IMG/VR virus record: IMGVR_UViG_3300042691_053605
Location: 1-64,000 of that record
Strand: one strand, 5' to 3'
DNA from: a virus
Length of the DNA stretch: 64,000 nt
A program made the position numbers and the translations under genes. The notes under the pieces were generated by a model. It searched no databases. It saw only the letters and a list, made by a program, of their open reading frames with translations, and had not been told where the DNA came from. Every line of letters begins with the position of its first letter. The stretch's first letter is position 1. Below, piece after piece: positions 21,386 to 29,998 of the stretch.

Positions 21386-22270
21386 TTACGCTAAATTTGA
21401 TGGAAGCGGAAGTTTGGCTTCCTCCAATTTTTTCTTAAAATCATTTAGGATTTCTCCTACTTTATCGTGAAACTTAAAATCGCCTCCAGTAATTAGGTTG
21501 TACAGACTTTCGTATGTCATAATGTCTGATACCTTATGGCCTCCATTAAACAGCAAGTTTACAATATCTGACGGTACTTTTGTAATGAGTTTATCAAATT
21601 CTTTTAGAAGGGTTGCATTTTTAAGCAAGCCTTTTTTACCTTCAAAACTCTTTCGTACCTGAACAATTCCTTGGTTTAACCTAACTACATATGCTTGGTA
21701 TTCTGCAGTTTCTCCTTTATCGGTTTCTTTCGTAATTTCAAAGAAAGACTTTCCGATTGCGGCCATGAGTAGCAGGTTACGATATGCACCTTTATACTCA
21801 GATTCGGCTTTAGTAAAGTCAGGCGAATGATACATAAAACGACTCCAGTCCAAATCATTGGTTAACATAAAGTCGAGCTGTCCTACTCCTTTTTTGTCAT
21901 CTCCTGCAATAGGAACTCCGATACTTACCTGATTAAACCCGACTGCAAGTTTGGTAGAATAACCAAGGCTCTTAAGTTTTTTGTCTAATTCAAATAGAGC
22001 ATTTTGTAATGACGTTCCTAAATGGCCTGCAATTTTATCCGCAGATACTGCTACATCAATATCTCCACTAGTGGCGCCTTGAACTTTTTTACCAGCGCTT
22101 CCTATAACCGCGGCATCATCATCAATACCAACCAGACCAATTTGCGGAAAGATATTCTTTACTACCCAGTCAATAGTTGGCTTTACTTCGTCTTGCTGAA
22201 ACGGAACTGCGTTATCAATGGAGTTTCCGCTCTCTAGCAAGAATTGTTCAAAAAGCTTAACGTACTTCAT
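21386..22270 (-). CDS. CTS-tagged Pol-beta-type nucleotidyltransferase
   Basis: A 294-residue protein. Tag MKYVKLFEQFLLE, then Ser. The nucleotidyltransferase fold shows GS (57-58), SGDIDV (Asp70 and Asp72) and a third carboxylate in GQLDFML (Asp133): the G-S-x(n)-D-x-D...D signature of the Pol-beta/MNT superfamily. Members transfer nucleotides to proteins, RNA or small molecules, and many belong to toxin-antitoxin or defence systems. The helical C-terminus could be a substrate or lid domain. Capsid delivery is inferred from the tag; the substrate is unknown. Confidence 0.75.
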   Translation of the reverse strand: MKYVKLFEQFLLESGNSIDNAVPFQQDEVKPTIDWVVKNIFPQIGLVGIDDDAAVIGSAGKKVQGATSGDIDVAVSADKIAGHLGTSLQNALFELDKKLKSLGYSTKLAVGFNQVSIGVPIAGDDKKGVGQLDFMLTNDLDWSRFMYHSPDFTKAESEYKGAYRNLLLMAAIGKSFFEITKETDKGETAEYQAYVVRLNQGIVQVRKSFEGKKGLLKNATLLKEFDKLITKVPSDIVNLLFNGGHKVSDIMTYESLYNLITGGDFKFHDKVGEILNDFKKKLEEAKLPLPSNLA

Positions 22271-22271
22271 C

Positions 22272-22799
22272 TTATTTCCAATCAGAACGTTTTGCAGCTT
22301 CGGAAGAGGTTAGCCATTTTCCAGCAATTACGTCATAGTAAATGTCATCGCGTTGCTCACCTGAAAAGATCAAAGAACAACCATTAGATCCACCGTTTGT
22401 ATGCTTATATGAGTAGTTCAAAGTTGCCCAAATATACGGAGCAAATTCAAATTTTTCGCTTGCTGCTTTATTAATTTCAGGAAAGCTTCCGCCACTAAAA
22501 ATACCAATGTAGACTTCAGCAAAACCGTATTGCATAAACCCTAATTCTTTTCCAGTAAACGGCTTACTGTCAAAATCAATTCTTCTTCCTTTATCTTTTG
22601 CAGTTAGCGGATTGTATTTAATTCCTTGACGGCTTAGCAAATCATTAAGAGCAGGACCGGCATTTTTAAGAATATCAGCTTTCAAAGAAGCCTCATCCTT
22701 GAATTTATCGTCACTTACAAATTGCATGACACCCTCATTTAGAGCTGGCTCAGAAAAGCCTTCTTTCAAATAGTTTTCGTAATTGTTTACATGTTTCAT
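22272..22799 (-). CDS. CTS-tagged hypothetical protein
   Basis: A 175-residue protein with tag MKHVNNYENYLKE, then Gly. After it comes an acidic linker and a domain rich in aromatic residues and strands (GFMQYGFAEVYIGIFSGGSF, then WATLNYSYKHTNGGSNGCSL). I do not recognise it. Its start overlaps the stop of the upstream gene by 4 nt, and its stop is 1 nt before the nucleotidyltransferase start. Confidence 0.7.
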   Translation of the reverse strand: MKHVNNYENYLKEGFSEPALNEGVMQFVSDDKFKDEASLKADILKNAGPALNDLLSRQGIKYNPLTAKDKGRRIDFDSKPFTGKELGFMQYGFAEVYIGIFSGGSFPEINKAASEKFEFAPYIWATLNYSYKHTNGGSNGCSLIFSGEQRDDIYYDVIAGKWLTSSEAAKRSDWK

Positions 22800-23080
22800 T
22801 TTATTTGACTTATATTAGTTATTTTGTTTCCCTTCTCAATAGGATTGCTTTTATCAGCGGAGTACAATAAGCCATCTTTAATTAAACGGTTAAGTACTTC
22901 GTCCTTTACAGGGTCAATTGGACCAAAATCTGCTACATCATCCCATGCCTCTTCCACATTTTCAGGATCAATCCATCCCGCGCCTTGCTTAATTGATTTG
23001 ACCAATTGCTTATAGTCGTACTCAAATTGCTTAACTGCGCCTTCATTTACATAGCTTTCAAAAGTGTGCAAGTGTTTCAT
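22796..23080 (-). CDS. CTS-tagged small hypothetical protein
   Basis: A 94-residue protein with tag MKHLHTFESYVNE, then Gly. The remainder is acidic and helical, ending in short strands. No recognisable domain. It is the first of a run of coupled genes toward lower coordinates. Confidence 0.7.
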   Translation of the reverse strand: MKHLHTFESYVNEGAVKQFEYDYKQLVKSIKQGAGWIDPENVEEAWDDVADFGPIDPVKDEVLNRLIKDGLLYSADKSNPIEKGNKITNISQIK

Positions 23081-23100: not shown

Positions 23101-23685
23101 CTATTTATTCACCACCGAATACTCGGTATATGACTTTTTGGTAGGCTTGGTGTTTGGAAAGTAGTACTTCTCAGTTTTCTTGCCTGCTATAATAGTCTTG
23201 GTAAATCCATCAGGAACCGTAGCGCCACTTGCTAATTTAATTGACTTAGCAGAAAAATGCAAATCAATTATGACTTTTACTTCACCAGTTTTTGCAAGTT
23301 CTCTCTCGTGTACTTCTAAAAATCTCCATACTCCGCGATTCAAATTCTCTTGTTGCAGAGCACAGTTCAAATATGAAAATGTCATTTTAAGATACTCCTG
23401 ATTACACGCAAAATCTGCGGCAGGTGCCATGTGTCCTTTATCCCATTCATTTCCTGCATAATCATTATGATCCGATGTTTTAATTCCACTCACTGGAAAG
23501 AAATCCAGTCCCGCTCTTGAAAAAACAGTTTCGGTACATGCAATGGTGTATTTCACCTGTAGCGGCTGTTCTAATTCTTCGGAATACTTTACCCAGAAAA
23601 CAGCGTTTCTAGTTTCCACAATACGATTCTGCGCAACAGAGATTAACGTAAAGAGTAAGAAGACAATTGTAAGTAGTCTTTTCAT
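23101..23685 (-). CDS. Secreted DNA/RNA non-specific endonuclease (NUC family)
   Basis: A 194-residue protein. The first 20 residues (MKRLLTIVFLLFTLISVAQN) are a signal peptide with positive n-region, hydrophobic h-region and likely cleavage near VAQ-N. The beta-beta-alpha metal nuclease motif is DKGHMAPAAD with catalytic His85, and SYLNCALQQENLNRG supplies the metal-binding Asn. This is the Serratia nuclease/EndoG-like family. Export means it would act on extracellular or periplasmic nucleic acid rather than in the cytoplasm. It has no capsid tag and sits inside the tagged cluster, overlapping the cupin gene upstream by 4 nt. Confidence 0.85.
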   Translation of the reverse strand: MKRLLTIVFLLFTLISVAQNRIVETRNAVFWVKYSEELEQPLQVKYTIACTETVFSRAGLDFFPVSGIKTSDHNDYAGNEWDKGHMAPAADFACNQEYLKMTFSYLNCALQQENLNRGVWRFLEVHERELAKTGEVKVIIDLHFSAKSIKLASGATVPDGFTKTIIAGKKTEKYYFPNTKPTKKSYTEYSVVNK

Positions 23686-23964: not shown

Positions 23965-24492
23965 TTACCAAGGTTCTGTAGAACTTAAACCTAATTGTTT
24001 TCCAAATAGGCTTGGCGCGTAACATGCCCAAAAACCTGGCGTGCTTGGATCCATTTTCTTTTTAAGATCACACTGTTGGCGGGACCAAAAAGATGCCGCT
24101 GCTGCCGGATCATCATTTTTAATACTCAAGCCAGAGGTATCACCCCATGTAATTTCATTTGCAATGATATTCCCATCATCATCTTTTTTTCCACTGTTAT
24201 GGTAAACCACAAATTTCTTATCGCCGCCTCTTTTAGGAGTGTCAAGTTCTACTTTGCGGCCATCTTTATTAACCGCGGCTTTTCCAACTTCCAGGTTAGC
24301 AGCCATCCAGGCAGCTTTATCTTTTAGGATGATGTTTCCTTCATCCCAATACTTTTTTGTCTCTTCAAAGAGTTGTTTGTAAGCATCGCTGCCAATGCGG
24401 TAGACGCTATTGGTAATATCCAACCCATTTTCCATGTGGTAACGAAATCCTTCGGAAACCTCAAATTGTTCAAATGTCTTTACGTATTTCAT
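23965..24492 (-). CDS. CTS-tagged protein with conserved phage C-terminal motif
   Basis: A 175-residue protein with tag MKYVKTFEQFEVSE, then Gly (one residue longer than the norm). The C-terminal domain KKFVVYHNSG, then ITWGDTSGLSIKNDDPAAAASF, then SRQQCDLKKKMDPSTPGFWA and a final Cys matches a small Cys-rich unit (R-x-x-C-D...TPG-[FY]-W-x-C) that recurs in T4-like phage proteins. Two cysteines and the WG/GFW aromatics suggest a compact metal-binding or structural fold. Function unknown. Its neighbour 24489-25196 carries the same 14-residue tag form. Confidence 0.72.
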   Translation of the reverse strand: MKYVKTFEQFEVSEGFRYHMENGLDITNSVYRIGSDAYKQLFEETKKYWDEGNIILKDKAAWMAANLEVGKAAVNKDGRKVELDTPKRGGDKKFVVYHNSGKKDDDGNIIANEITWGDTSGLSIKNDDPAAAASFWSRQQCDLKKKMDPSTPGFWACYAPSLFGKQLGLSSTEPW

Positions 24493-25196
24493 ATCTTTAT
24501 GCCAAAATGTTCTTTAACCGCTTCTTCGATGCCTAACGCATAAGACCAAATGTCTTCGGATATCTTTTTTTCATCAGCTCTAACAAACGTAATGAGTGGC
24601 CAGTAAATGATGTTTTTAGTTATGGTTTCACTGGGAAAAGTCATTTCATAATACTTACCATTCTTTTCACCAAATGCATGAACTATTAGGCTTTCTGCAT
24701 AGTACTTGCCAATGTCATCTTTTTTCATACAGATTCCACCAATTGCTTTACCGCCTGTTTCTTCAAACCACTTTGATGCGTTACCAAAACATTGGTTTCT
24801 TGCGCCGCCACCCCCAATCCATTCTGCTTCAACGCTTTTTGTTATTTCATCCAAAACAGCAGCAATTACTGCTGTCTTACTAATAAAATTAACAGCTTCT
24901 AGCTTACCTTCTTTATCAACTGTGTAATCTTTGAACCATCCAGGTCTTTTTTCAGCAGGATCTTTATCGTTCCAGCGTTTTGCAATCTCATCTGCTTGCT
25001 CTAATGCAAATTTTCCAGCTGGTGTATTTTTCCACTTGCCAGACTTAAGTATTGAAAGCGTTTTTGACTTTGCCGATGAAGATCCGCCAGAAGCATACTT
25101 TAAGTTTCCACCTAAGCCTGTGCTGTAGACAGTTTCATTTAGTTGCTGAAATCCTTCAGAGACCTGGAAGTCTTCAAATGTCTTTACGTACTTCAT
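24489..25196 (-). CDS. CTS-tagged protein, possible papain/transglutaminase-like fold
   Basis: A 235-residue protein with tag MKYVKTFEDFQVSE, then Gly. After a Gly/Ser linker, a domain shows NQCFGNASKWFEETGG (Cys136, followed by x-x-Asn-Ala), then IVHAFGEKNGKYYEMTFP (His173 and a polar residue about ten positions on). The Cys...His...Asn/Asp order with C-[FY]-x-N-A and [EV]HA[FW] is the layout of papain- or transglutaminase-like enzymes. A peptidase or amidase is therefore possible. Start overlaps the upstream gene by 4 nt. Confidence 0.68.
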   Translation of the reverse strand: MKYVKTFEDFQVSEGFQQLNETVYSTGLGGNLKYASGGSSSAKSKTLSILKSGKWKNTPAGKFALEQADEIAKRWNDKDPAEKRPGWFKDYTVDKEGKLEAVNFISKTAVIAAVLDEITKSVEAEWIGGGGARNQCFGNASKWFEETGGKAIGGICMKKDDIGKYYAESLIVHAFGEKNGKYYEMTFPSETITKNIIYWPLITFVRADEKKISEDIWSYALGIEEAVKEHFGIKI

Positions 25197-25723
25197 ATTA
25201 CTTTAGTGTCTTTTACGTGTCTTTTGACAAAGTCAACTATGTCTTTTTGGATAATTTCATCAGACGGTTTGTCAATGATCTTGCTTGCTTCTAATGTAAA
25301 GTCTTCATCAAAAGGAAGCGGATCCAATTCAAGTTCAAACAGTTCAATCTTTTGGATGTAATTGGTGATTCCTGTAATGTAACCTTGCACTTCTTCTTCC
25401 ATCTGGTCCTCGATTTCTCCACCTTTAGTAGCTGCCTTTCCGCTAAAATGGGAGGCGTTCCATTGATACGGTTGAACTTTATAGCGGTTAGAGAGTTTAT
25501 CACCGTCAATCATAATTCTGCACTCGGCAGGTATAATACGGGTTCTTTTTTGAAAGTTTTTATCTCGAGTTAATGATACTCTTGCGTACTTACCTAAAGA
25601 CTTGTCACCTAATACATCATCATCAAGAATCTTAAGAAGCGCCAGTATCGTAGTGTAGTGATAAACAGTACCTACTTGCTTGGCTTCATACAAAAAACTC
25701 TCAAATGTCTTTACGTATTTCAC
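25193..25723 (-). CDS. CTS-tagged ADP-ribosyltransferase-like protein
   Basis: A 176-residue protein with tag MKYVKTFESFLYE, then Ala. The domain starts directly after the tag with VYHYTTILALLKIL (His22-Tyr23), continues RVSLTRDKNF (Ser50-Leu-Thr) and ends with an acidic stretch EDQMEEEVQGY (Glu109-111). This is the His-Tyr...Ser-Thr...Glu order of NAD+-using ADP-ribosyltransferases of the DarT/DUF4433-like (H-Y-E) type. T4 packages the ADP-ribosyltransferase Alt with a related N-terminal tag and injects it. The family is inferred from motifs only; target unknown. Confidence 0.68.
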   Translation of the reverse strand: MKYVKTFESFLYEAKQVGTVYHYTTILALLKILDDDVLGDKSLGKYARVSLTRDKNFQKRTRIIPAECRIMIDGDKLSNRYKVQPYQWNASHFSGKAATKGGEIEDQMEEEVQGYITGITNYIQKIELFELELDPLPFDEDFTLEASKIIDKPSDEIIQKDIVDFVKRHVKDTKVI

Positions 25724-26391
25724 AGAGGTATGTAGTTTTGCGGATGCGTTGAAGATGATACTTTACCATTATGTAAAACATATGCATCTTTCCGAATTTC
25801 CGCAGTCCAAGTGCCTTTTAATTTGCCACCTTGTTTCTTAATGTATTCCAAATAGAGCCGGCCTCTTTTTGTTTGCGGAATTGGAGTAAGCTCCTCACCC
25901 AGTTCAGTCTTTGGCATAATCCAAATCTCATCAACTTTAATCCATTGGATCTGCTGAAGTTCTTTCATTAATTCTTGCATAATATCGGAAACTGTTGATA
26001 TTACGCGAAACTGTTCACCGAAATTAGTAATGGCTTCACTGTTTGGATTATTTCCTTTTTCTACACCAAATGACACTGCAAAAGAAACATTGTAATCTTG
26101 CGGTTTAGTTGCAGAAGCTTTTATTTGTCCAAAATTGATGTAATGATGTTCATTAAACCAGCCCAGTATCTTAACTGTGTAGGTTGCATTATCACTCTTA
26201 AACTCATAAGACAAATCTGGAAGACGATTGTTCTGTGAAGAACTTCCTCTCTCCCACTTTGACATATCAGCCATCCAGGTACCAACTTTATTACTGCCGG
26301 TACGTTTCCAAGAAAACGGAGAAACGCCTTCTCCTATTTCATTTAGAGTCTGTTCATTTAGAAAGCTGTCAAACGTATGAATATGTTTCAC
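25720..26391 (-). CDS. CTS-tagged hypothetical protein with GTG start
   Basis: A 223-residue protein. An ATG exists at 26421, but the tag V/MKHIHTFDSFLNE begins at a GTG (26389-26391) one nucleotide past the stop codon of the upstream gene. The GTG is therefore the likely start. The tag ends before Gln rather than a small residue. The rest (KVGTWMADMSKWERG, then HHYINFGQIKAS, then TKRGRLYLEYIKKQGG) is a mixed alpha/beta domain I do not recognise. Its stop overlaps the downstream start by 4 nt. Confidence 0.7.
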   Translation of the reverse strand: MKHIHTFDSFLNEQTLNEIGEGVSPFSWKRTGSNKVGTWMADMSKWERGSSSQNNRLPDLSYEFKSDNATYTVKILGWFNEHHYINFGQIKASATKPQDYNVSFAVSFGVEKGNNPNSEAITNFGEQFRVISTVSDIMQELMKELQQIQWIKVDEIWIMPKTELGEELTPIPQTKRGRLYLEYIKKQGGKLKGTWTAEIRKDAYVLHNGKVSSSTHPQNYIPL

Positions 26392-26392
26392 C

Positions 26393-26890
26393 CTATTTGA
26401 TATTTTTAAGAGCAAATTCAATTAGCTCTAGTGCAGGTTTTTCAACATCCTTTTCAACCTTAAAGATTGCACGGTTACCGTAAGGCTGAAAATTTGTATC
26501 AAAGGCTTTCTTATTAGAAATAAACATATCGGCAACTTTCTTTGCCATTCCTTTTGGATCGGCTTTAAGCTCTTCTAGATTTGTAACTATATTATTGCCA
26601 GGTGAACCAATGTATCTCTTATCTCCTCTGTCGTCTTCAGATCCGTACCCGGATCTGATAAACAGATTTCCATTATGTGGTTCAATGGCAATAAGAACAA
26701 TATTTGGTCTGTCCAAAAAGTTTACAGTTTTGTCATTACCAAATACTTCTCCAGAATAGAAGACGTAAATATCTCTATTTGAATCTTTTTTTACTTCAGG
26801 CTTTTGGCCGTTCCAAAGACTTGCACTGATAGTTGCCTTTTCAGCAGCAGCCTCATTTAAGAAACTTTCAAATGTACTTATGTGTTTCAT
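26393..26890 (-). CDS. CTS-tagged hypothetical protein
   Basis: A 165-residue protein with the canonical tag MKHISTFESFLNE, then Ala-Ala-Ala. The domain has a beta-rich centre (DIYVFYSGEVFGNDKTVNF, then IVLIAIEPHNGNLFIRSGYG) and a helical C-terminus. No known family recognised. Spacing with neighbours is a 4-nt overlap upstream and 1 nt downstream. Confidence 0.7.
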   Translation of the reverse strand: MKHISTFESFLNEAAAEKATISASLWNGQKPEVKKDSNRDIYVFYSGEVFGNDKTVNFLDRPNIVLIAIEPHNGNLFIRSGYGSEDDRGDKRYIGSPGNNIVTNLEELKADPKGMAKKVADMFISNKKAFDTNFQPYGNRAIFKVEKDVEKPALELIEFALKNIK

Positions 26891-27411
26891 AGGTCACCGA
26901 CTCTTTTAATTTTTACTTCTTTCTTATTGTTGGATCCAACCGCTTTTACCGCGGTTCCTTTTTGTAACTTAAACATATCAGAATTCTTTACAATGATTGA
27001 TCCTAAAGTATCACGAAGAGGATCACCGTCCATAAAGTACAGCGAATCGCTGTCGTCGTTTTGTCTTTCAAACCCAGCAATTTTTGTATTAACTACACCA
27101 GAATCAGTGGTAATTTCATACTGACCTGCAATTTTTACGTTATATGGAATTGGCTTATACGCTTCCACCAATTCGCTTTCTTTTACTATTATTGCGCGAG
27201 TTCCAAAACGTTCTTTTACCAAACGAATAGCCGTACGAGCTTTACCACTATTTTCTACTTCAAATACGGTAGGCTTAACTTTTGTGTACTTAACACCGTT
27301 AGCTTTTAAGTCTCTTTCCATTGAATCTGCTGCAGACTTTGTAAGAGTAACCGTTATCGTGTCAGAAGTATTTTCGCTTAAAAAGCTTTCAAATGTATGT
27401 ACGTGTTTCAT
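26887..27411 (-). CDS. CTS-tagged hypothetical protein
   Basis: A 174-residue protein with tag MKHVHTFESFLSE, then Asn. It appears to have two parts. One is an alpha/beta unit (TITVTLTKSAADSMERDLKA, then ARTAIRLVKERFGTRAIIV) resembling a ferredoxin-like fold. The other is a C-terminal beta segment ending in a basic KKEVKIKRVGDL. Function unknown. It overlaps both neighbours by 1-4 nt. Confidence 0.7.
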   Translation of the reverse strand: MKHVHTFESFLSENTSDTITVTLTKSAADSMERDLKANGVKYTKVKPTVFEVENSGKARTAIRLVKERFGTRAIIVKESELVEAYKPIPYNVKIAGQYEITTDSGVVNTKIAGFERQNDDSDSLYFMDGDPLRDTLGSIIVKNSDMFKLQKGTAVKAVGSNNKKEVKIKRVGDL

Positions 27412-27791
27412 TAGTATGACAATTTTATTTCAATTTCTTGACGTTTCTTAATTAACGATTCAATTTCACTATCAACTATATTAAGCCGACTTCCATAACG
27501 ATTTGCATCATCATCGGTCCAAGAAGTGCCTTTTTGTCCGGCTTCAGCTTCCATATCGTCATAAATGTTTCTACGCTCAGCATACGCATCTTTTAGATCT
27601 TGCGCAATGTCCCAAAGCTGATTTTCTAAAGCTTCTCTCTTTTTACCGTAAACTCTTTTTTTCATTCTTTCAGCTTGGTCGGCGGCTTTCTTTTCTCGGT
27701 CCATTCTAGAAGCTCGGATTGCCACTAATACCGGGTCATTTTGATCTAGACCTTCATTTAGGAATCCTCCAAATGTGTGTAAATGTTTCAT
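27411..27791 (-). CDS. CTS-tagged helical protein
   Basis: A 126-residue protein starting at the tag MKHLHTFGGFLNE, then Gly. An in-frame ATG four codons upstream (27803) is possible but would disrupt the tag's N-terminal position. The rest is a long amphipathic coiled coil with heavily charged heptads (DREKKAADQAERMKK, ENQLWDIAQDLKDAY). It may be structural. Function unknown. Confidence 0.68.
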   Translation of the reverse strand: MKHLHTFGGFLNEGLDQNDPVLVAIRASRMDREKKAADQAERMKKRVYGKKREALENQLWDIAQDLKDAYAERRNIYDDMEAEAGQKGTSWTDDDANRYGSRLNIVDSEIESLIKKRQEIEIKLSY

Positions 27792-27793
27792 TC

Positions 27794-28015
27794 TTATCTC
27801 CATTTTTTATCAAGCGTATCTATTACCTGATTGATAAGTGTACTTAACTCATCAGGATTGATATCATTCTTCTTCATATAGGCATCAAACAGATTTTGAC
27901 GTGAACCTAATTTCAAAACATCCGAAATAAAGTTACCCGCGTCAAACTGATCTACTTTTCGAAGTTCTTTTTCATTGACTTTATTGAAGTCGTTAAACGA
28001 TTGAATGTTTTTCAT
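27794..28015 (-). CDS. Small tagged protein, first gene behind a class B promoter
   Basis: A 73-residue helical acidic protein. Its start MKNIQSFNDFNKVNE is a looser, 15-residue tag, then Lys. It is the first gene after a class B promoter-like site at 28028-28057, so the run of tagged genes toward lower coordinates can be transcribed from there. Function unknown. Confidence 0.65.
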   Translation of the reverse strand: MKNIQSFNDFNKVNEKELRKVDQFDAGNFISDVLKLGSRQNLFDAYMKKNDINPDELSTLINQVIDTLDKKWR

Positions 28016-28027
28016 ACTTTTAATTTA

Positions 28028-28057
28028 ATAGTATAAAGGTAATACAATTTTTTCAAA
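28028..28057 (-). promoter_or_regulatory. Class B promoter-like site
   Basis: Minus-strand TTTG, 18 nt, TATACTAT, then TAAATTAAAA and the start of the 73-residue gene 12 nt further. Same spacing and sequence as the ligA site. It would drive the accessory cluster. Confidence 0.55.
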
Positions 28058-28092
28058 TAAAAAAATGTTTTGACCTAAACTTATTAACAAAT

Positions 28093-28674
28093 TTATTTTA
28101 TGTATTTACGCATTTCTTCGTAATACTTCCAGAGCTCTTTTGGCATCAGACTTTCAAAAGCCTTTTTATCATCATCACGTAGCGCTTGACGAACTTTTGT
28201 GCCGCTCGGTCCATCGCCTTCGCGAGTATCTACAAGTTTCAATGAAAAAGCTGGATCTACCGGTGTATCGGTTTTAGGACCTTTAATGTATTCCACTTGA
28301 CGCTCGTAATCTTTCATACGATCTGCACCGGCGCCAAGTCCCATAGGCTCGTACGCGTTATCTCTTAAAAAACGTACAAACCAAGGAATAACGGTCTTTC
28401 CGTAATTTTGTGGATAAATGAAATAGTCTGCAATAAAGGAATGACCTTTAACTATGTCATTTCCCATTTTCTGCAAAAGAGAATCTGGGAACGGCGATTC
28501 CTCATTTTTTGAAAGAATTTGTAACGGAATTACTGGCAATCCAAACAACTCAGAGGTTTTCTTCATTGCGGCCAAATGCCCGTTATGAAAAGGCTGAAAT
28601 CTTCCTGGGAAGAAAACTACCTTTCTGCTGCCAGCTTCAAAAACAAAGCTTTCAAATGTTTTGACGTATTTCAT
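28093..28674 (-). CDS. CTS-tagged NMN-adenylyltransferase-like nucleotidyltransferase
   Basis: A 193-residue protein starting at the tag MKYVKTFESFVFE, then Ala. The start ATG (28672-28674) directly follows the upstream stop; a start at 28692 would overlap. The catalytic domain begins four residues after the tag: VVFFPGRFQPFHNGHL with the HxGH motif (His30, His33), and near the end GPSGTKVRQAL, the SxTxxR signature. These mark a cytidylyl/NMN-adenylyltransferase (NadM-like) enzyme. If it makes NAD+ from NMN and ATP it would support NAD-requiring enzymes of the phage. Cleavage at the tag would leave the enzyme intact. Confidence 0.8.
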   Translation of the reverse strand: MKYVKTFESFVFEAGSRKVVFFPGRFQPFHNGHLAAMKKTSELFGLPVIPLQILSKNEESPFPDSLLQKMGNDIVKGHSFIADYFIYPQNYGKTVIPWFVRFLRDNAYEPMGLGAGADRMKDYERQVEYIKGPKTDTPVDPAFSLKLVDTREGDGPSGTKVRQALRDDDKKAFESLMPKELWKYYEEMRKYIK

Positions 28675-28675
28675 A

Positions 28676-29998
28676 TTACTTTTTGTAAGCAAGAATGCTT
28701 CTTATTTGATGTAACGGAGCAAAGATTCCGGTGTACTTGTACAGGTTTCCTTTGAATACAAAGGTTATACCTTCGGTTGGCACAATAGATTCTAAACCAC
28801 CAGCCGCGGCAACCCGTGTTAATTCATGCTCTAATTTTTCCACATCCTTTTCATCACCGTTTGTACGAACTTTTGCAATGGTATCATCAATTTCCTTTCG
28901 CATAGCTTGTGTAGCTTGAGTTGGATTTGCTGATAGGAAGGCGCTGATGTTTTTCATCATTTCAGTACCTATCTCTAAAAACAGACTTTCAAGTGGAGCA
29001 TAGATTTTTCTTTTTAGAGCCTTTCCTTTGTCCTTTTCTAATGTGATAAACCAATCAGCGGCAGGGCCTAAATCTTTCTTAAGTGTAGCAACGGTATATG
29101 ACTTATCAATATCAGCCAATCGACGGGCTAAACCATCAACCGCAATTTCTGGAATTTCCACTTTAGCCGCCTTTGCCTCTTCAAGAAGAATACGCTTTCC
29201 CATACCCAATGCATAATCACCAACAGTACTGCTGGGATTACATCCGCTTTCTGACATTACATCAGAAAGCTTCTTTTCATAATAGGCAGCGCGAGCTTTT
29301 GTATTTGGAAATGGAGTAGAAGCAATATCTTGCGGACCGCGAACATAAAATTTCTTTTGGGCGGCAGCATTTGCATCTGCAATTAATTTTCCTAAATCTC
29401 GGCCGGCTTGCTTATCTTCGCCAATTGCGTTTCCAGCGTCATCGTGTTCAACCACTCCGTGAAGAACTAACATGTCCTTTCCGTACGGAACTGTATTTTG
29501 AGTAATCGGGGTAATCACTTCTACGGAAGCAAACTTTTTACCTTCATCAAAATACTTCTTCTTATCGGCATCTGATAGTTTTCCGATTGCTCCTTCTAAA
29601 TCCGCCATTGCAGCATTATACGCAGTTTCAATATCTCCACGACCAGCAAATAAGCTGGCAATCCCACTTCTGTCCAACGCAGCTTCTCCCGCATTTTTTA
29701 GATGGGACTTGTTTCGAGCGGCAATTAGCTTCCCGCCTTTCCAAGAGATCATGATATTTTGGCCATCCGTCTTCTCTTGCACAAAGTTTTCTGGACCAAA
29801 TGCTCCATTTACGGTAGAGCTGATCATATCTTTTAGGTCTTGCATAGTTAGACCAACATCCTCAAAAGGATGACTGATATGACCGTATGCTCCACCTTCA
29901 AAAAGCTGTTCTTCATAGAGACCAGCCGATTCATCCATTTTCATCAGCTCAATAAGAGCAGATTCTCGGAGAAACTGGGTATAACTTTTAAGACTCAT
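28676..29998 (-). CDS. Tagged ligase-type nucleotidyltransferase (KTDG motif)
   Basis: A 440-residue protein beginning MSLKSYTQFLRE, then Ser, a short form of the tag. Motif I of covalent nucleotidyltransferases is QEKTDGQN with nucleophile Lys76, followed by SWKGGKLIAARNK (the [FY]-x-x-R-N-type element). A strand with EVITPITQN and LVLHGVVEHDD corresponds to motifs IIIa/IV. This places it with RNA/DNA ligases or capping enzymes. Ala/Lys-rich helices follow. The substrate is unknown. The 30021-30040 hairpin lies just upstream. Confidence 0.72.
   Translation of the reverse strand: MSLKSYTQFLRESALIELMKMDESAGLYEEQLFEGGAYGHISHPFEDVGLTMQDLKDMISSTVNGAFGPENFVQEKTDGQNIMISWKGGKLIAARNKSHLKNAGEAALDRSGIASLFAGRGDIETAYNAAMADLEGAIGKLSDADKKKYFDEGKKFASVEVITPITQNTVPYGKDMLVLHGVVEHDDAGNAIGEDKQAGRDLGKLIADANAAAQKKFYVRGPQDIASTPFPNTKARAAYYEKKLSDVMSESGCNPSSTVGDYALGMGKRILLEEAKAAKVEIPEIAVDGLARRLADIDKSYTVATLKKDLGPAADWFITLEKDKGKALKRKIYAPLESLFLEIGTEMMKNISAFLSANPTQATQAMRKEIDDTIAKVRTNGDEKDVEKLEHELTRVAAAGGLESIVPTEGITFVFKGNLYKYTGIFAPLHQIRSILAYKK

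What the first reader, a model, noticed from the sequence alone, without database searches (positions are those of the whole stretch)
25193..25723. A tagged ADP-ribosyltransferase may be this phage's equivalent of T4 Alt
Seen: after the tag, His-Tyr (VYHYTT), Ser-x-Thr (SLTRD) and a Glu cluster (MEEEV) occur in that order. Known: T4 injects Alt, an ADP-ribosyltransferase with a related tag, which modifies host RNA polymerase. DarT-like enzymes (H-Y-E class) ADP-ribosylate DNA or protein using NAD+. Inference: convergent use of a different ART type by the same delivery route, hitting the host at the moment of injection.
Basis: partly seen in the sequence, partly recalled or inferred. Interest (0 to 1): 0.78.

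Follow-up and report, generated by a model that had tools for sequence, protein, structure and literature searches.

The report
Capsid-tagged ADP-ribosyltransferase family of phages
This phage gene encodes a small enzyme of the ADP-ribosyltransferase fold that carries a T4-style 'pack me into the head' tag, so it is probably injected with the DNA to modify something in the bacterium; related phages carry up to twelve such tagged copies.

Summary
The ORF, the tag and the three motifs are real. The tag (MKYVKTFESFLYE|A) closely matches the capsid targeting sequence of T4 IPII/IPIII (MKTYQEFIAE|A) and ends in the T4 gp21 cleavage motif L/I-x-E. The phage encodes a gp21-type protease and a gp23-type capsid protein. 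At least 16 genes in the genome carry the tag; 0.1 are expected by chance. A family absent from Pfam, PHROGs and NCBIfam was recovered (34 distinct sequences). His22, Ser50, Arg53, Pro85 and Glu110 are invariant in all 34; one further copy has Lys at 110. AlphaFold models of two members match ADP-ribosyltransferase folds (Tpt1 and DarT, Z 8-11). So the enzyme class is supported, but the triad reads H-S-E rather than H-Y-E, and the protein is homologous to neither T4 Alt nor (by sequence) DarT. Nearly every relative has the tag, or at least its L/I-x-E end, just before the domain. One relative's genome holds 12 copies, eight in one tandem array with conserved tags and diverged enzyme domains. 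In other relatives the domain sits in a larger protein between likely protease sites. Target, NAD+ use and virion presence are untested. Head-packaged phage ARTs are a published theme; this is a new variant.

The parts
25193..25723 (-). Tagged ART-fold protein, 176 aa, GTG start; single copy in this genome
   Evidence: fold
25685..25723 (-). Capsid-targeting-type tag MKYVKTFESFLYE (residues 1-13); predicted gp21-type cut after LYE, before Ala14
   Evidence: T4 IPII/IPIII MKTYQEFIAE|A; L/I-x-E motif of gp21 (PMC9026906)
25658..25660 (-). His22 in first strand (YHxT); invariant 34/34
25565..25576 (-). Second-strand motif S50-L-T-R53 (VS[FL]TR); Ser50 and Arg53 invariant 34/34
25469..25507 (-). 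Family signature DxxKLxxRYKxxP (D73-P85)
25394..25399 (-). Glu109-Glu110 at the start of the catalytic strand; Glu110 is the candidate catalytic Glu (34/34 in the alignment; Lys in one later-found copy)
24489..25196 (-). Tagged neighbour MKYVKTFEDFQVSEG, 235 aa, unknown; overlaps the ART gene by 4 nt
23965..24492 (-). Tagged neighbour MKYVKTFEQFEVSEG, 175 aa, unknown
25720..26421 (-). Tagged neighbour (MKHIHTFDSFLNE from an internal GTG), unknown
26393..26890 (-). Tagged neighbour MKHISTFESFLNEA, unknown
26887..27411 (-). Tagged neighbour MKHVHTFESFLSEN, unknown
27411..27803 (-). Tagged neighbour MKHLHTFGGFLNEG, unknown
28093..28692 (-). Tagged HIGH-type adenylyl/cytidylyltransferase (FFPGRFQPFHNGH), weakly closest to NMN adenylyltransferases
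21386..23080 (-). Three more consecutive tagged genes (21386-22270, 22272-22799, 22796-23080)

Best explanation
The gene encodes a mono-ADP-ribosyltransferase cargo protein. Its first 13 residues dock it into the prohead core; the phage's gp21-type protease cuts after Glu13; and the mature ~163-residue enzyme is packed with the DNA and ejected into the host. There it would bind NAD+ with His22, Ser50 and neighbouring residues and use Glu110 to transfer ADP-ribose to a host molecule at the start of infection. Shown: the sequence features, family conservation, fold prediction, and the presence of a T4-type protease and capsid gene. Inferred: packaging, cleavage, ejection, NAD+ chemistry. Unknown: the target; a host protein is my first guess, a nucleic acid my second.
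For: Tag closely matches T4 IPII/IPIII and ends in the gp21 motif L/I-x-E (PMC9026906). 16 tagged ORFs, all on the coding strand, 0.1 expected. Own gp21-type protease: PF03420 4e-14, PHROG head maturation protease 4e-38; gp23-type major head protein 8e-30. The protease's long C-terminal region holds nine YAEYLAE-like repeats, mostly 14 residues apart, resembling the tag. AlphaFold: pLDDT 79.8 / pTM 0.76 for this protein, 80.9 / 0.78 for relative L014. VIA Z 9.4 and 10.9 to Tpt1, 8.1 and 9.3 to DarT; the upper rows are nearly all ARTs. Profile's top PDB sequence hit is DarT, weak (E 0.21); 8 of 21 members weakly hit Tox-ART-HYD1. H, S, R, P, E invariant in 34 distinct sequences. In the two phages with strong gp21 genes and 12 and 7 family copies, the copies that were read carry the tag.
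Against: No virion proteomics or enzymology. Foldseek's best E-values are only 1.8e-3 and 1.4e-3. Best Tox-ART-HYD1 score is 24.0 bits, below the cut-off of 25. Profile comparison with DarT aligned only the N-terminal His motif, so the Ser and Glu assignments rest on conservation, predicted strands and pattern, not on superposed coordinates. One copy (L054) has Lys at the Glu110 position.
Confidence: 0.75

Rival explanations
1. It is a packaged DarT-like enzyme that ADP-ribosylates nucleic acid (host DNA or RNA, or DNA/RNA ends) rather than protein.
For: DarT is the full-length structural match (Z 8.1-9.3 over 132-143 residues) and the profile's top PDB sequence hit. One member reads QAE at the Glu, as DarT does.
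Against: No PF14487 match; no macrodomain antitoxin in the genome; DarT's conserved HIQxRR and DYVPFYF motifs are absent. An enzyme packed with the phage's own DNA would risk modifying it.
Confidence: 0.2
2. It is an RNA-repair 2'-phosphotransferase (Tpt1/KptA type), not an ADP-ribosyl transferase to macromolecules.
For: Tpt1 catalytic domains give the highest Z (9.4 and 10.9) at low rmsd.
Against: PF01885 does not match. Alignments to full Tpt1 chains begin at about Tpt1 residue 86-94, so the N-terminal part of Tpt1 is not matched. The strand-5 Glu is near-invariant, which fits transferases better than Tpt1. The tandem, fast-diverging copies do not look like a repair enzyme.
Confidence: 0.07
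3. It is a catalytically dead internal head protein that keeps the ART fold only as a binding or structural module.
For: Packaged proteins can act by binding, for example T4 IPI inhibiting a restriction enzyme (PMC9026906). One relative has lost the Glu110 position.
Against: His, Ser, Arg and Glu stay invariant across 34 sequences that are otherwise only about 25% identical.
Confidence: 0.1
4. The tag is not a capsid signal but some other N-terminal feature, and the enzyme is made and acts in the infected cell.
For: No virion data; some relatives' contigs are too short to show a gp21 gene.
Against: Match to T4 IPII/IPIII, cleavage motif, own gp21 and gp23 types, and the same motif at the borders of the domain in larger proteins.
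Confidence: 0.1

Closest known systems
T4 Alt (head-packaged ADP-ribosyltransferase)
   Same: An ART with an N-terminal propeptide ending in L/I-x-E, in a phage with gp21-type protease and gp23-type capsid; expected to be ejected with the DNA
   Different: No sequence similarity; 176 aa versus 682 aa; H-S-E rather than the R-S-E type given for the Alt/VIP2 family (PMC9503650); the tag is of the IPII/IPIII type, whereas Alt has MELITE; target unknown
T4 internal proteins IPI, IPII, IPIII
   Same: Near-identical capsid targeting sequence (MKTYQEFIAE|A against MKYVKTFESFLYE|A); small, diverse, tagged genes
   Different: The T4 IPs are three proteins in two places; here there are 16 or more tagged genes, several in one overlapping block, and this one is a predicted enzyme
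DarT (PF14487) and Tpt1/KptA (PF01885)
   Same: Closest solved folds; YHxT-type first strand
   Different: Neither family model matches; family signature DxxKLxxRYKxxP and S-x-T-R are its own
Tox-ART-HYD1 (PF15633)
   Same: Weak HMM match to the first ~60 residues of seven of nine members tested
   Different: Below the curated cut-off (24.0 against 25 bits); conserved Ser and Glu instead of the Tyr and Asp in the family's name
Head-packaged and polyvalent phage ARTs (Iyer et al. 2022, PMC9503650; PMC5512222)
   Same: Published theme: myovirus ARTs are often packaged and injected, sometimes inside multidomain proteins
   Different: Those papers infer packaging from fusions to MuF or polyvalent proteins and from gene neighbourhood; in the passages read I found no mention of an IP-type tag on ARTs or of tagged tandem arrays. 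Whether their survey includes this family could not be checked

Membership tests
ADP-ribosyltransferase superfamily (fold) | ART fold | tested here: met
   Two AlphaFold models; PDB rows dominated by ARTs, Z up to 9.4 and 10.9
ADP-ribosyltransferase superfamily (fold) | His on first strand and Glu at start of catalytic strand, conserved | tested here: met
   H22 34/34 on strand 18-23; E110 34/34 in the alignment (Lys in one later copy) on strand 108-112 (model numbering is one less than ORF numbering); not superposed on a solved active site
ADP-ribosyltransferase superfamily (fold) | NAD+ binding and ADP-ribose transfer | not testable with these tools
   Needs biochemistry
H-Y-E clade | Tyr at the second-strand position | tested here: not met
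   Ser50 is invariant there (V-S-[FL]-T-R), 34/34
T4 Alt family | Sequence homology to Alt | tested here: not met
   hhalign E 0.83, blastp E 0.59
DarT family | PF14487 match | tested here: not met
   No match in the genome at E<=1; profile comparison aligned 25 columns only
Tpt1/KptA family | PF01885 match | tested here: not met
   No match at E<=1
Tox-ART-HYD1 | PF15633 above cut-off | tested here: not met
   Best 24.0 bits of 25 in relative L026; the window protein does not match
T4-type capsid-targeted internal proteins | N-terminal targeting sequence ending in L/I-x-E | tested here: met
T4-type capsid-targeted internal proteins | gp21-type protease and gp23-type capsid protein in the same phage | tested here: met
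T4-type capsid-targeted internal proteins | Protein found in the virion, cleaved at the site | not testable with these tools
   Needs virion mass spectrometry

The most novel reading that the evidence does not exclude
Large phages carry a dedicated, rapidly diversifying arsenal of capsid-loaded ADP-ribosyltransferases: up to twelve tagged paralogues per genome, or a multi-enzyme precursor cut into single effectors by the head protease. The tag mimics the repeats of the protease/scaffold protein, and tag removal exposes a conserved new N-terminus (G/A-K/R...) beside the active-site strand, so that head maturation might also switch the enzymes on.
Probability: 0.3. Interest if true: 0.8.

Novelty: new variant of a known kind. 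Interest (0 to 1): 0.6.

Why it matters
If right, the tag gives a way to read a phage's injected effector set directly from its genome, and this ART family becomes a testable set of first-minute host-takeover enzymes outside the T4 lineage. The tandem arrays, with tags 70% and enzyme domains 33% identical, suggest selection for many different targets delivered by one route.

Tried and rejected
Pfam, PHROG and NCBIfam scans of the protein found nothing credible, as did phmmer against the PDB. tblastn found only Bacillus phage SP-15 among named phages and nothing in plasmids. A bacterial genome scan with a three-sequence alignment found no relatives; that method needs exact short matches, so absence from prokaryotes is not shown. 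hhalign against four DarT sequences aligned only the His motif. The tag regular expressions were written after seeing the tags; the plus-strand and shuffle controls guard against this only in part. Paper searches for IP-tagged ARTs other than Alt and for polyproteins cut by a prohead protease found no precedent in this library, which lacks most subscription journals. NAD+ supply by the tagged nucleotidyltransferase was considered but not adopted: it stays far below the NMN adenylyltransferase cut-offs.

Full report
Observation. The ORF runs from 25723 to 25193 on the minus strand, starts with GTG and encodes 176 aa. It overlaps both neighbours by 4 nt. The genome is a 142,917-bp virus record; this is its only member of the family.

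The tag. T4 IPII and IPIII begin MKTYQEFIAEA, read here from the T4 record. The window protein begins MKYVKTFESFLYEA. In T4, about ten such residues suffice for packaging, and gp21 cuts after L/I-x-E (PMC9026906; PMC5694885). A strict pattern finds 16 tagged ORFs, all on the coding strand, against 0.1 expected after shuffling; a looser one finds 23 (one of them inside the major head protein) against 1.1. Several form one block of consecutive, mostly overlapping genes (23965-28692). The same genome encodes a gp21-type protease (PF03420 4e-14; PHROG 4e-38) and a gp23-type head protein. The protease is unusually long (631 aa). Between residues 268 and 406 it holds nine YAEYLAE-like repeats, mostly 14 residues apart, resembling the tag's F-x-x-F-L-x-E. 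My inference is that the tag imitates a scaffold repeat.

The family. Library scans found nothing for the protein itself. tblastn found Bacillus phage SP-15 and a viral-contig scan one 96% identical relative. A DNA pattern for the shared signature DxxKLxxRYKxxP gave 28 loci, nearly all genuine. In an alignment of 34 distinct sequences, H22, S50, R53, P85 and E110 are invariant and E109 is 33/34. One further copy, in L054, reads EAEKF and has Lys at the 110 position. In 17 of 21 aligned members L/I-x-E lies within the ten residues before the YHxT motif.

The fold. AlphaFold with 21 sequences gave pLDDT 79.8 and pTM 0.76. Foldseek's best PDB rows were Tpt1 (1.8e-3) and DarT (3.9e-3); VIA-align gave Tpt1 Z 9.4 and DarT 8.1, with ART toxins below. 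A second, diverged member (L014) gave pLDDT 80.9 and Z 10.9 and 9.3. Independently, the sequence profile's best PDB hit was DarT (E 0.21), and several members weakly matched Tox-ART-HYD1 (best 24.0 bits, cut-off 25). I conclude that the ART fold is very likely. His22 lies on the first strand, Ser50 on the second and Glu109-110 at the start of the later strand, so the triad reads H-S-E; the adjacent Tyr residues are not the 'Y' of H-Y-E. This mapping uses conservation and predicted strands; coordinates were not superposed.

Not Alt, DarT or Tpt1 by membership. There is no similarity to T4 Alt, whose propeptide is MELITE (cut site from PMC5694885). PF14487 and PF01885 do not match. No macrodomain gene was found in the record.

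Arrays and larger proteins. Contig G001 (109 kb) has 12 copies, eight of them head to tail in 4.2 kb; G002 (147 kb) has 7. Both have strong gp21 genes. The copies outside the arrays that were read also start FKQ[FY]LxE or similar. In the eight-gene array, tags are 70% and domains 33% identical on average. In L017, L023, L026 and L029 the domain sits inside a longer protein, with L/I-x-E just before it and usually after it. In L017, L023 and L026 it follows a HIGH-type nucleotidyltransferase motif; in the window and in L002 a tagged HIGH-type enzyme is a separate gene close by. Whether these long proteins are cut into pieces is a hypothesis.

Relation to the literature. Iyer et al. 2022 (PMC9503650) report that phage ARTs are enriched in myoviruses, often inferred to be packaged, and numerous in some giant phages; polyvalent multidomain proteins are described in PMC5512222. 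The idea of injected ARTs is therefore not new. What I did not find described is this H-S-E family, its IP-type tag, and the tagged arrays.

Mechanism. Most likely: docking in the prohead core by the tag, cleavage by the protease, ejection with DNA, and ADP-ribosylation of a host molecule. The first steps rest on strong homology to T4; the last on fold and conservation; the target is open.

Noticed in passing
L008 332-4565 (+), contig IMGVR_UViG_3300038701_002504: Eight tagged ART genes head to tail; 12 family members in the 109-kb contig. Two of the longer matches cross stop codons, so some copies may be decaying or the matches run past the gene end.
   Followed up: partly
L017, L023, L026, L029: ART domain inside longer proteins with L/I-x-E at its borders; three also have an N-terminal HIGH-type nucleotidyltransferase motif, and L026 ends in a nucleotidase-like region (PF06941, below cut-off).
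   Followed up: partly
L039 13092-14987 (-), genome 137092-138987: The gp21-type protease is 631 aa with YAEYLAE-like repeats that resemble the cargo tag; probably protease and scaffold in one protein.
   Followed up: partly
window 28093-28692: Tagged HIGH-type adenylyl/cytidylyltransferase, a second predicted enzyme among the tagged genes; might be injected too.
   Followed up: partly
L037 8740-9609 and L039 16552-17289: Further genes with tag-like starts: PAP2-type phosphatase (MKNYKEFITEK) and LicD-type enzyme (MTMYNYEEWLAES).
   Followed up: no
window 23101-23685: Untagged protein with a signal-peptide-like start and a nuclease-like motif (DKGHMAPAADF), next to the tagged block; also present beside the block in L002.
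   Followed up: no
L002 2043-2609: Ferritin-like protein with a tag-like start among the tagged genes of the near relative.
   Followed up: no
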